This document shows positions 15,590 through 18,498 of a stretch of 64,000 bases of DNA, piece after piece. Below the pieces are notes generated by a model, which was given only the letters and a program-made list of their open reading frames with translations, did not search any database and was not told where the DNA came from. The position numbers and the translations under genes were made by a program. Where the stretch lies: NCBI GenBank assembly GCA_021797735.1, contig JAJZZE010000045.1:62001-126000 (forward strand), written 5' to 3'. How positions within the stretch are numbered: position 1 is the stretch's first letter; each line of letters begins with the position of its first letter. This DNA comes from Thermoplasmata archaeon (GTDB lineage: Archaea; Thermoplasmatota; Thermoplasmata; Thermoplasmatales; Thermoplasmataceae).

Positions 15590-15781
15590 ATGACATATTA
15601 TTTCAAATGTAAGGATTTGGGATGGAACTGTTCCTTCGAAAACCATGCTGAAAAAAGAGATGATGTATATCCGAGGATAAGGATACATTTTCATTATGCA
15701 CATGCTACAAACGAAATAGATGAGGAAACATTGAAAAAGATCGATAAGGTTATTTTTGAGGGTGAACAGTACAAAGGGTGA
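15590..15781 (+). CDS. DUF1059-family small protein
   Basis: A 63-residue protein beginning MTYYFKCKDLGWNCSF, with later HFHYAHATNEIDEETLKKI. The KCKDLGxxC motif and the conserved His region are typical of DUF1059, a small Cys/His-containing family of unknown function. A TATA-like TTTTATATTAAAA lies about 25 nt before the ATG. The open frame extends further upstream without support. The stop codon TGA forms part of GGGTGA, a ribosome-binding sequence that now faces the IscB element rather than hisS. Confidence 0.8.
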   Translation: MTYYFKCKDLGWNCSFENHAEKRDDVYPRIRIHFHYAHATNEIDEETLKKIDKVIFEGEQYKG

Positions 15782-16045
15782 ATGTCAACTACCCACGACT
15801 GAAGCTGTGGGCTTGTCCCGCGAGGGCAACGCAAGAGTTGATTAGGGGGCTTTGAAAATGTGAAAAACATAGAGGAAAAGCAGAAGTTAGAAGAGAGAAA
15901 TACATACACACCCACTGGTGCTCCACAAGCCTGTGGCAACTGTGACCATGCATTAAACATAGAGGGAACTCTCAGTGTGCATGGTTTAAAAACCTCTTCT
16001 AACAACCCCGATGTGGACCTACAGTCAGGCATGGCTGTACGGGAC
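15782..16045 (+). ncRNA. IscB-associated omega RNA (HEARO RNA)
   Basis: The interval between the DUF1059 stop and the true iscB start carries features I associate with HEARO/omega RNA. There is a 5' hairpin CCCACGACTGAAGCTGTGGG (15792-15811). A GC-rich segment with GGCAACGC follows, then AACCTCTTCTAACAACCCCG (15990-16009), then GGCTGTACGGGACATGAGAG at the junction with iscB. Such RNAs bind IscB and guide it with a short segment at their 5' end. The guide would derive from the left flank, the last bases of the DUF1059 gene. Assignment rests on recalled motifs. A covariance-model search would settle it. Confidence 0.75.
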
Positions 16046-17230
16046 ATGAGAGTTCCCGTTTTAAACATGCGTAACAAACCATTAATGCCAGCAACACCAG
16101 CTAAGGCAAAGGTTGTTCAGAGATCACCATTCACTATACAACTTCTCTATGCAGCAGGAGAGGCAAAGCGGCCTGTTAAACTTGGAATAGGCCCGGGTTA
16201 TAGGCACATGGGATTCTCAGCAGTAACAGATAAAAGAGAATTAATATATGGGGAAGCGGTAATAAGAACTGATATTCCTAAGCTGAACGCAGAAAAGTCC
16301 ATGTACAGAAAGCCAAGATTTTTAAATAGAGGAAATAAAAAAGAAGGATGGCTGGATCCAAGTATGGTTCATAAAATAAATACATATATTAGATTAATTA
16401 ATAAAATCAAGAAAACTATTCCTGTATCTAAGATTGTTATTGAAATAGCAAAATTTGATGCACAGAAAATGCAGAACTCAGAAATATCTGGAATAGAATA
16501 TCAGCAGGGGGAGCTTCAAGGGTACGAGATAAGGGAATACCTTCTTGAGAAATTCCACAGGAAGTGTGCATACTGTGGAAAGGAGAACATACCATTGGAG
16601 ATAGAACATATTATCCAGAAATCGAGAGGTGGCTCAAATATGGTATCAAACCTTACCATGTCCTGGCATAAATGCAACCAGAAGAAGGGAAACATGACAG
16701 CAGAGGAATTTCATCACCCTGAAGCATTGAAGAATGCACAGAAACTCCTCAAAGAGGCCCCATTCATGAATGTTGTAAAGCAAAAAATAGCATGGATCCT
16801 GGGATGTGAAACTACACTTGGATCCATAACAAAGATGAATCGCATTGCACTTGGAATAGAGAAAACCCATGCAAATGATGCATTCATCATAACCGGTGGG
16901 TCAACACAGAACAGAGCACCATTGTTTATGGTAAACCAGAGAAGATGGAACAACCGCTGCCTGCAGTTGAACAGAAAAGGCTTTAAACTCTCGATAAGAA
17001 AGAAGAGATATGGCTTCCAGCCGGGAGATACTGTTCTATTCCAGAAAGAGGAGTGGAACGTAATGGGAATGCATAATGTTGGAAAACGTGTAATTATTAA
17101 AAAAGGTGAAAAAAAGATGGATGTAAATGTAAGAAAGGTACAGCTAAGAAAGTATGGCAAAGGATTGAAATTTAATATACAATTTCCCTCACTCCTAAAG
17201 AATGGGGTATCCCCGGAGGTATCCCGATGA
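16046..17230 (+). CDS. IscB-like RNA-guided nuclease homologue, catalytically impaired
   Basis: A 394-residue IscB (ancestor group of Cas9). PLMP motif: KPLMPATPAKAK (11-22). RuvC-I region: LGIGPGYRHMGFSAV (46-60). RuvC-II: IVIEIAKF with Glu133. HNH: Cys174/Cys177, EIEHII with His188, SNLTMSWHKCN with Asn202. RuvC-III: His275 and Asp278. Against family memory four changes stand out. The RuvC-I Asp is Gly49. The second zinc pair has Trp207 instead of Cys. About 10 residues are missing after PAKA. About 10-12 residues of the Arg-rich bridge helix are missing at MYRKPRF (87-93). The frame nevertheless remains open. The longer open frame back to 15860 reads through the omega RNA and is not used here. 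The stop overlaps the hisS ATG. Confidence 0.85.
   Translation: MRVPVLNMRNKPLMPATPAKAKVVQRSPFTIQLLYAAGEAKRPVKLGIGPGYRHMGFSAVTDKRELIYGEAVIRTDIPKLNAEKSMYRKPRFLNRGNKKEGWLDPSMVHKINTYIRLINKIKKTIPVSKIVIEIAKFDAQKMQNSEISGIEYQQGELQGYEIREYLLEKFHRKCAYCGKENIPLEIEHIIQKSRGGSNMVSNLTMSWHKCNQKKGNMTAEEFHHPEALKNAQKLLKEAPFMNVVKQKIAWILGCETTLGSITKMNRIALGIEKTHANDAFIITGGSTQNRAPLFMVNQRRWNNRCLQLNRKGFKLSIRKKRYGFQPGDTVLFQKEEWNVMGMHNVGKRVIIKKGEKKMDVNVRKVQLRKYGKGLKFNIQFPSLLKNGVSPEVSR
17215..17220 (+). promoter_or_regulatory. GGAGGT ribosome binding site for hisS, inside the IscB element
   Basis: GGAGGT ends 6 nt before the hisS ATG at 17227. It lies within the last codons of iscB. It is complementary to the CCTCC of the 16S rRNA 3' end and replaces the GGTGA that lies at 15777-15781 on the other side of the element. 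Confidence 0.6.
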
Positions 17231-18498
17231 AAATAGGAAAAATAAAGGGATTTAGGGACCATTATCCTGAAGATATGGAAATTAGAAACTCCATATTCAA
17301 CAGGATGACCAGCACTGCAGAAAATTTTGGCTATAAAAGAATAGATTTTCCAAGTTTAGAATTACTTGACATGTACAGGCTAAAATCCGGATCCGAACTT
17401 GTAAACCAGACATTTTCTTTTACCGACAGGGGTGGAAGGGATGTAACATTAATTCCTGAGGCAACGCCATCAACCGTTAGATTGCTAACATCAAGGAAAG
17501 ATTTGCCGAGACCAATAAGATGGTATTCATTTCCAAAGGTATGGAGATACGAGGAGCCACAGGAAGGAAGATTCAGGGAGCACTATCAATTTAATTCGGA
17601 TTTATTCGGAATAGATTCGCAGGAAGCAGATGCAGAGGTTGTAGGCCTGGCATCTAAAATACTGGACACTCTGGGGTTATCCGGTGTCTATGAAATAAAT
17701 ATAAATGACCGTTCTGTAATGGAATATATTTTAAAGGATTTAGATGTAAGTGATATAAATACTGCTTTTTCAATAATAGATAAATATAGAAAAATAGATA
17801 AGAATTCATTTTTCAAACTATTTAAGGAAATAGATGTCGGGGAAAAAAGCATAGACAAAATTACATATCTGCTATCTGAAAAAATAAATATAAAAAATCT
17901 TGAGAAAAAATTAAGGAAAACGTTAAACAATTATGATGGTATAGAAGACCGCATAAACCGGATAAAAAGAACATTCGAAATCATAAATTATTATACAGAT
18001 AGCAATATAAACTATGATTTTTCGGTAGTAAGGGGATTATCATATTATACCGGAATAGTTTTTGAGGCATTTGACATTCAGGGAGAGTTAAGAGCCATAC
18101 TCGGTGGTGGGAGATATAACAATTTATCAACACTATTCTCAGATGAGGAAATACCTGCAGTTGGATTTGCAATAGGTGATGCAGTAATAGAACTGTTATT
18201 AAAAAGAAATAACTTGTGGTTAAACAACAGTTTAAAAACATCGTATTATATATGCAGTACAACAAACAATTATGATTATCCGGTAAAAATTGCAAATGAC
18301 ATCAGGAATAAAAATAAAATTGCACTGGTAGACATAACAAACAGGAAATTATCCGCACAGGTAAAAAGTGCATCATTATACAACTATGCAATAGTAATAG
18401 GCGATAATGAAATAAAAGATAATAGCATAACAATAAAAAATATGAATAACAGTGAACAGAAAACAATTAAATATGTTCAATTTATGGATAGTTTATAA
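17227..18498 (+). CDS. hisS: Histidyl-tRNA synthetase
   Basis: A 423-residue class II synthetase that charges tRNA-His. Motif 1 region is IKGFRDHYPEDM. Motif 2 is WRYEEPQEGRFREHYQFN. The histidine-binding HisA block is RGLSYYTGIVFE. Motif 3 is in AVGFAIGDAVIELL. The C-terminal 90 residues form the anticodon-binding domain. The ATG overlaps the iscB stop (ATGA), so translation may be coupled to iscB. A TATA-like TTTAATATA at about 17170 could give an independent transcript. Confidence 0.95.
   Translation: MKIGKIKGFRDHYPEDMEIRNSIFNRMTSTAENFGYKRIDFPSLELLDMYRLKSGSELVNQTFSFTDRGGRDVTLIPEATPSTVRLLTSRKDLPRPIRWYSFPKVWRYEEPQEGRFREHYQFNSDLFGIDSQEADAEVVGLASKILDTLGLSGVYEININDRSVMEYILKDLDVSDINTAFSIIDKYRKIDKNSFFKLFKEIDVGEKSIDKITYLLSEKINIKNLEKKLRKTLNNYDGIEDRINRIKRTFEIINYYTDSNINYDFSVVRGLSYYTGIVFEAFDIQGELRAILGGGRYNNLSTLFSDEEIPAVGFAIGDAVIELLLKRNNLWLNNSLKTSYYICSTTNNYDYPVKIANDIRNKNKIALVDITNRKLSAQVKSASLYNYAIVIGDNEIKDNSITIKNMNNSEQKTIKYVQFMDSL

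What the first reader, a model, noticed from the sequence alone, without database searches (positions are those of the whole stretch)
15777..17229. IscB element sits between the Shine-Dalgarno of hisS and its start codon, and supplies a replacement
The DUF1059 gene ends in GGGTGA (15776-15781). This is the GGTGA ribosome-binding motif used throughout this genome at operon junctions 5-7 nt before the next ATG. The hisS ATG is now 1,445 nt away, after an omega RNA and iscB. Directly before that ATG the element carries GGAGGT (17215-17220, 6-nt spacing), and the iscB stop overlaps the hisS ATG as ATGA. The simplest history is insertion between ribosome binding site and start codon, with the element's end taking over translation of an essential synthetase gene.
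Basis: partly seen in the sequence, partly recalled or inferred. Interest (0 to 1): 0.78.

Follow-up and report, generated by a model that had tools for sequence, protein, structure and literature searches.

The report
Start-codon IscB transposon carrying ribosome-binding site
In this Ferroplasma-like archaeon a transposon of the Cas9-ancestor (IscB) family sits exactly in front of the start codon of an essential gene, and nearly all of its ~50 relatives in this and related genomes do the same, each bringing a ready-made ribosome-binding site so that the invaded gene can presumably still be translated.

Summary
The anatomy is real. An IscB/HEARO element occupies exactly 15784-17226 (1,443 bp, no target duplication) between the DUF1059 gene and hisS. 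Eight or more relatives hold the empty site, with DUF1059 and hisS adjacent and overlapping as ATGA. GGTGA at 15777-15781 is therefore a private two-base change that gives DUF1059 a new stop, not the stranded hisS Shine-Dalgarno (SD). The claim about the right side is correct and holds far beyond this copy. Of 49 distinct insertions in ten genomes of the family, 44 lie immediately before a gene's start codon, against an expected 2.5-5% of ATGA sites (at most 31% if only non-coding and start sites are allowed). Targets include nuoB, leuS, ileS, rpoK and rad50. The right end carries GGAGG about 7 nt before the ATG. It pairs with the 16S tail better than the native leader in 28 of 30 cases. The target ATGA also supplies the iscB stop codon (51 of 54 in register). 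Best explanation: an ATGA-targeting transposon whose end rebuilds a translation start, so insertions at start codons are tolerated. Translation was not measured. New variant of the IscB/HEARO kind.

The parts
15590..15781 (+). DUF1059 gene, upstream partner of hisS; ends 2 codons earlier than in relatives
   Evidence: Pfam PF06348 E=5e-14; empty-site relatives end ...EYKGEI/GKI with TGA inside the hisS ATGA
15776..15781 (+). GGGTGA: derived replacement stop codon of DUF1059, not the ancestral hisS Shine-Dalgarno
   Evidence: relatives read GGGGAA or GGGAAA at these six positions
15768..15783 (+). left flank that would be transcribed as the omega-RNA guide (inferred; 16 nt by analogy with known IscB)
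   Evidence: immediately 5' of the HEARO model start at 15784; guide role from established IscB/IsrB biology (PMC9581776)
15784..17226 (+). whole IscB/HEARO element, 1,443 bp; left end GTCAACTACC, right end GGAGGTATCCCG; no target-site duplication
   Evidence: alignment of the two junctions with empty sites; same ends in other copies
15784..16022 (+). HEARO / omega RNA
   Evidence: Rfam RF02033, 118 bits, E=3e-25
16046..17230 (+). iscB; reading frame has no stop of its own and ends in the TGA of the target ATGA; RuvC-I Asp replaced (GIGPG) and about 7 N-terminal codons missing
   Evidence: PF14239 and HNH; alignment to IscB structures; comparison with the intact G007 copy, GIDPG
17186..17207 (-). 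predicted single-stranded-DNA hairpin of the transposon end (bottom strand), outside the GGAGG
   Evidence: DNA fold of the bottom strand of three copies; z = -2.35 for one copy, not significant for this one
17215..17220 (+). GGAGGT, element-borne Shine-Dalgarno-like sequence, -14.6 kcal/mol with the 16S tail
   Evidence: conserved in other copies
17227..17230 (+). ATGA: target flank, hisS start codon and iscB stop codon
17227..18498 (+). hisS (histidyl-tRNA synthetase)
   Evidence: PF13393; homologues in relatives align from Met1

Best explanation
This is one copy of an IscB/HEARO transposon family of Thermoplasmatota (the host is in the genus of Ferroplasma acidarmanus) that inserts immediately 5' of ATGA, in most copies where ATG is the start codon of a gene. 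Shown: the exact ends, the empty sites, the ATGA flank, the start-codon position of about 90% of copies, and the conserved GGAGG about 7 nt before the ATG. Also shown: the iscB frame is set so that the target TGA ends it, recreating the ATGA stop/start overlap typical of operon junctions. Inferred: after insertion the GGAGG, helped by iscB (or a 37-codon iscB remnant) terminating on the ATGA, lets ribosomes start on the invaded gene. Insertions at start codons, even of essential genes, are therefore tolerated and kept. Because a start codon cannot mutate freely, it would also be a durable target-adjacent motif for the IscB-RNA complex.
For: Empty versus filled junctions match to the base for hisS and for L135, L138, L147 and the L130/L140 site. 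Forty-eight right ends were collected without looking at what follows them, and seven more copies were reached from the left end or by DNA match. 44 of 49 distinct sites start an open reading frame at the flank and three more lie within 14 nt of a start. Of 32 targets with a Fer1 match at E<=1e-20, 30 align from residue 1-3 of the Fer1 protein. Fer1 background: 23,692 ATGA sites, 581-1,120 of them starts, 2,468 outside ORFs; binomial p = 6e-53 for all sites and 2e-17 for non-coding plus start sites only. Anti-SD energy: 44 element copies mean -10.5 kcal/mol, Fer1 genes -4.0, shuffled leaders -3.1; element stronger than the native leader in 28 of 30, p = 2e-5. The TGA of ATGA is in register with the iscB frame in 51 of 54 copies.
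Against: No expression data exist here. The GGAGG could be kept for transposition or, in full-length copies, for the IscB C-terminus. Four full-length IscB copies in other families of the phylum have their right end beside ATGA or GTGA that is not a start codon. Most bacterial plasmid copies lack the SD-like end although five sit at annotated start codons. Gene starts were called from ORFs and orthologues, not from proteomics. Copies within one genome share ancestry of their ends, though not of their flanks.
Confidence: 0.76

Rival explanations
1. One reading: GGTGA at 15777-15781 was the working hisS Shine-Dalgarno and was cut off from its ATG by the insertion.
For: The joined sequence GGGTGAAT|ATG pairs well with the 16S tail (-8.5 kcal/mol), so it could have been a private pre-insertion improvement.
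Against: Absent from all empty-site relatives, including the closest (98% HisRS identity), which read GGGAAAAT or GGGGAAAT. GGTGA 2 nt from ATG is outside the usual 4-6 nt. The change creates a DUF1059 stop exactly where the insertion removed the old one.
Confidence: 0.08
2. GGAGG is conserved only because the transposase (Y1 type) or the IscB C-terminus needs it; its position as a Shine-Dalgarno is a by-product and invaded genes use other signals.
For: The motif lies between the predicted DNA hairpin and the cleavage site, where transposon ends need sequence; it also encodes part of the C-terminus (Leu-Glu) in full-length copies.
Against: It is kept in internally deleted remnants without full iscB or recognisable omega RNA, while neighbouring linker positions vary. 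Bacterial relatives with ATGA flanks usually lack it.
Confidence: 0.25
3. The start-codon pattern is active targeting of translation starts by the transposition machinery rather than selection after random ATGA insertion.
For: 44 of 49 exceeds even the generous 31% expected when only non-coding and start ATGA sites survive; three of the five exceptions are within 14 nt of a start.
Against: No mechanism beyond the ATGA flank is visible, and selection against non-start intergenic copies or faster decay of them would give the same picture. Four copies in other families of the phylum are not at start codons.
Confidence: 0.15
4. hisS is transcribed from a promoter in the element's right end.
For: A TATA-like TTTAATATA lies at 17171-17179, about 50 nt before the ATG.
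Against: That stretch is not conserved in the other copies, and DUF1059 keeps its own AT-rich promoter-like upstream region.
Confidence: 0.12

Closest known systems
HEARO RNA elements (Rfam RF02033)
   Same: The RNA scores 118 bits at the left end of the element. From memory (Weinberg et al. 2009, paper not held), such elements were reported next to ATGA or GTGA.
   Different: The start-codon placement, the SD-like end and the stop codon supplied by the target were not found described in the papers searchable here.
IscB / ISC transposons of the OMEGA class (IS200/IS605-related)
   Same: RRXRR and HNH domains, omega RNA upstream of iscB, guide position at the left flank, no target duplication, and an ATGA flank matching the NTGA motif read by the relative IsrB (PMC9581776).
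   Different: The right end carries a Shine-Dalgarno-like GGAGG, no stop codon, and about 90% of copies abut start codons. This copy has lost the RuvC-I Asp.
IStrons (group I intron plus IS605)
   Same: A mobile element that limits damage to the invaded gene with a built-in device; the abstract (PMC4227781) says self-splicing renders insertions harmless.
   Different: Here the device would be a translation start in the DNA end, not RNA splicing.

Membership tests
IscB / OMEGA transposon | RRXRR-containing protein with a RuvC domain split by HNH | tested here: met
   PF14239 E=1e-38, HNH_5 E=4e-12; aligns to solved IscB
IscB / OMEGA transposon | intact RuvC-I, HNH and RuvC-III catalytic residues in this copy | tested here: not met
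   RuvC-I Asp is Gly (GIGPG) here, intact GIDPG in the G007 copy; HNH His and the KTH..DA motif present. The copy is a member by descent, probably impaired as a nuclease.
IscB / OMEGA transposon | omega RNA directly upstream, beginning at the left end | tested here: met
   RF02033 15784-16022 and the empty-site junction at 15783/15784
IscB / OMEGA transposon | RNA-guided DNA cleavage with a 3' target-adjacent motif | not testable with these tools
   The right flank ATGA is the expected position and type (PMC9581776), but no activity was measured
IS200/IS605-type transposition | precise insertion without target duplication next to a fixed short sequence | tested here: met
   hisS plus four other filled/empty pairs, all with right flank ATGA
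IS200/IS605-type transposition | Y1 transposase available | tested here: inconclusive
   None in the element; PF01797 genes in G000 (1) and G007 (9), not linked to these ends
HEARO (RF02033) | score above the family cut-off | tested here: met
   118 against 83 bits

The most novel reading that the evidence does not exclude
A lineage of IscB transposons has specialised on translation start codons. Its target-adjacent motif is the start codon plus A, its end carries a Shine-Dalgarno sequence and a stop-less iscB tail that rebuild the ATGA stop/start overlap, and it thereby lives in front of essential genes whose start codons cannot mutate away from the nuclease's motif.
Probability: 0.5. Interest if true: 0.82.

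Novelty: new variant of a known kind. Interest (0 to 1): 0.72.

Why it matters
[quoted passage not shown] A family that targets start codons and repairs translation would explain how insertions in front of essential genes are tolerated, and gives a start-codon motif that hosts cannot easily mutate. It also makes simple predictions: GGAGG mutants should lower expression of the downstream gene, and unselected insertions should show whether targeting or selection makes the pattern.

Tried and rejected
GGTGA as stranded SD: rejected by the empty sites. Ascertainment by right-end similarity as the cause of the start-codon pattern: copies found from the left end or by DNA match show the same in most cases (L176, L177, L178, L183, L186; exceptions L179, L184; right end lost in L182). 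A conserved RNA hairpin hiding the GGAGG: folds of four copies were not better than shuffles. Outward promoter in the right end: TATA-like stretch not conserved. Own 16S: the archaeal SSU model found nothing in the own assembly, so the Fer1 16S tail was used. The original HEARO, ISC, OMEGA and transposon-spread papers are not in the held library. Generality in other families of the phylum: four full-length copies end beside ATGA or GTGA but not at starts; a further hit (L371) ends at ATGG, not a start.

Full report
1. What is there. The window (contig C37 of a 1.97 Mb, 57-contig assembly in the same genus as Ferroplasma acidarmanus) holds DUF1059 (15590-15781), an omega RNA of the HEARO family (15784-16022), iscB (16046-17230; the longest frame opens at 15860 inside the RNA) and hisS (17227-18498).

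2. The empty site. At least eight relatives have DUF1059 and hisS adjacent with nothing between. L009, whose HisRS is 98% identical, reads ...CAATACAAAGGGAAAAT|ATGAAAATAGG; L016, L010, L011, L013 and L014 read ...TAYAAAGGGGAAAT|ATGA. The window reads ...CAGTACAAAGGGTGAAT|GTCAACTACC...GGAGGTATCCCG|ATGAAAATAGG. The element is therefore 15784-17226, inserted without duplication. In these empty sites the DUF1059 stop TGA lies inside the hisS ATGA. The insertion took that TGA away from DUF1059; the window's GGGTGA is a private two-base change that gives it a new stop two codons earlier. It is not the old ribosome-binding site: no relative has GGTGA there, and at 2 nt from the ATG it would sit outside the 4-6 nt used in Fer1. 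Whether the change came before or after the insertion cannot be proved.

3. The same end elsewhere. DNA matches in the own genome showed other right ends, all followed by ATGA. A survey of relatives with the IscB protein, the HEARO model and the right-end DNA gave 48 right ends, plus seven copies reached from the left end or by DNA match. One lies at a contig end (L151) and five pairs are the same site in two genomes, leaving 49 distinct sites. In 44, the flank is the first codon (ATG or GTG) of an open frame. Recognisable products include NuoB, IleS, LeuS, Rad50 and RNA polymerase subunit K (my reading of the translations, not family searches). Of 32 targets with a Fer1 match at E<=1e-20, 30 align from residue 1-3 of the Fer1 protein, 26 with ATGA as the start there too; the other two are paralogues below 40% identity aligning from residue 12-15. 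Of the five exceptions, L141 and L143 lie 14 and 8 nt before the start and L179 13 nt inside the gene; L150 and L184 are unclear.

4. DNA-level proof at other sites. Between this genome, its close relative G007 and G004, filled and empty junctions agree at L135, L138, L147 and the L130/L140 site: left flank, GTCA..., right flank ATGA. L133 agrees on the right, with a degenerate left end. Many sites differ between G000 and G007, so the family has moved recently.

5. Chance. Fer1 has 23,692 ATGA sites on both strands; 581 (most upstream start) to 1,120 (any candidate start in the first 30 codons) are gene starts and 2,468 lie outside called ORFs. For 44 of 49 the binomial p is 6e-53 against 4.7%, and 2e-17 against 31%, the share if only non-coding and start sites were allowed. 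Gene calls were simple ORF calls, so the background is approximate.

6. The ribosome-binding site. The Fer1 16S tail is GGATCACCTCC. The 20 nt before the ATG pair with it at -10.5 kcal/mol on average in 44 copies (all at or below -4), against -4.0 for 1,454 Fer1 genes (39% at or below -4) and -3.1 for shuffled leaders; for hisS it is -14.6. In 28 of 30 targets the element's leader is stronger than the Fer1 native one (Wilcoxon p = 2e-5). About half of the targets (15 of 30) follow an upstream gene within 20 nt or overlap it; others look like first genes. In the right-end profile the G at -11 is 98% conserved, -9 89%, -8 93%, while -7 and -3 vary.

7. The stop codon. In 51 of 54 copies the TGA of the target ATGA is in frame with iscB; in those ending CTG|ATGA an in-frame TGA formed across the junction comes one codon earlier. 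Internally deleted copies often keep a 37-codon iscB tail with its own SD and ATG, in frame to the ATGA; 26 copies have an in-frame ATG with an SD of -6 kcal/mol or better. This could be selected coupling or simply the structure of a non-autonomous founder.

8. State of this copy. IscB here has GIGPG instead of GIDPG in RuvC-I and lacks about seven N-terminal codons (RKLLKKG) present in a G007 copy; the G007 full-length copy is intact at RuvC-I. Y1 transposases exist in G000 (1) and G007 (9) and might act in trans (inference).

9. Wider view. In 14 plasmid IscB loci of bacteria, about 11 right ends by eye are followed by ATGA, and in five that ATGA is the annotated start of the next gene; only a Nostoc copy has GGAGG there. 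Four full-length copies in other families of the phylum are not at start codons. So the ATGA flank is general, start-codon placement is frequent but not universal, and the SD-bearing end is mainly a feature of this archaeal family.

10. Judgement. Shown: ends, empty sites, flank, start-codon placement, conserved SD-like end, stop from the target. Inferred: use of the SD and coupling in vivo, selection versus targeting, and the idea that an immutable start codon is a durable motif for IscB. The papers that first described HEARO, ISC and OMEGA could not be read, so prior description of the start-codon pattern cannot be excluded.

Noticed in passing
window 16046-17230: This iscB copy has lost the RuvC-I aspartate (GIGPG) and about seven codons (RKLLKKG) near its N-terminus, yet its frame stays open to the hisS ATGA.
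   Followed up: partly
L132, L140, L142, L154, L159, L162, L166 and others: Internally deleted copies keep a 37-codon iscB tail with its own strong Shine-Dalgarno and ATG, in frame to the TGA of the host gene's ATGA: a possible leader ORF.
   Followed up: partly
L163, L168, L177 (L145 is similar, before ATGT): A second kind of right end, cut at GGATTGAG or GGATTGAA and followed directly by ATGA or GTGA of a gene start.
   Followed up: no
L336 1115-1188: Group II intron domain match (RF00029, 49.7 bits) about 150 bp downstream of the left end of the copy in front of leuS in G007.
   Followed up: no
L176 (G024:C19): A deleted HEARO element directly in front of a gene that reads like a serine recombinase.
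   Followed up: no
L163 and L178: Thiolase-like genes in two genera (G001, G013) each carry an element at the start codon, with different right-end types, suggesting independent insertion at the same gene.
   Followed up: no
window 54813 region: Empty counterpart in this window of the G007 insertion L141.
   Followed up: partly
L374 (G142:C117): A distant IscB copy whose ATGA appears to have been the stop codon of the upstream gene, about 17 nt before the next likely start.
   Followed up: no
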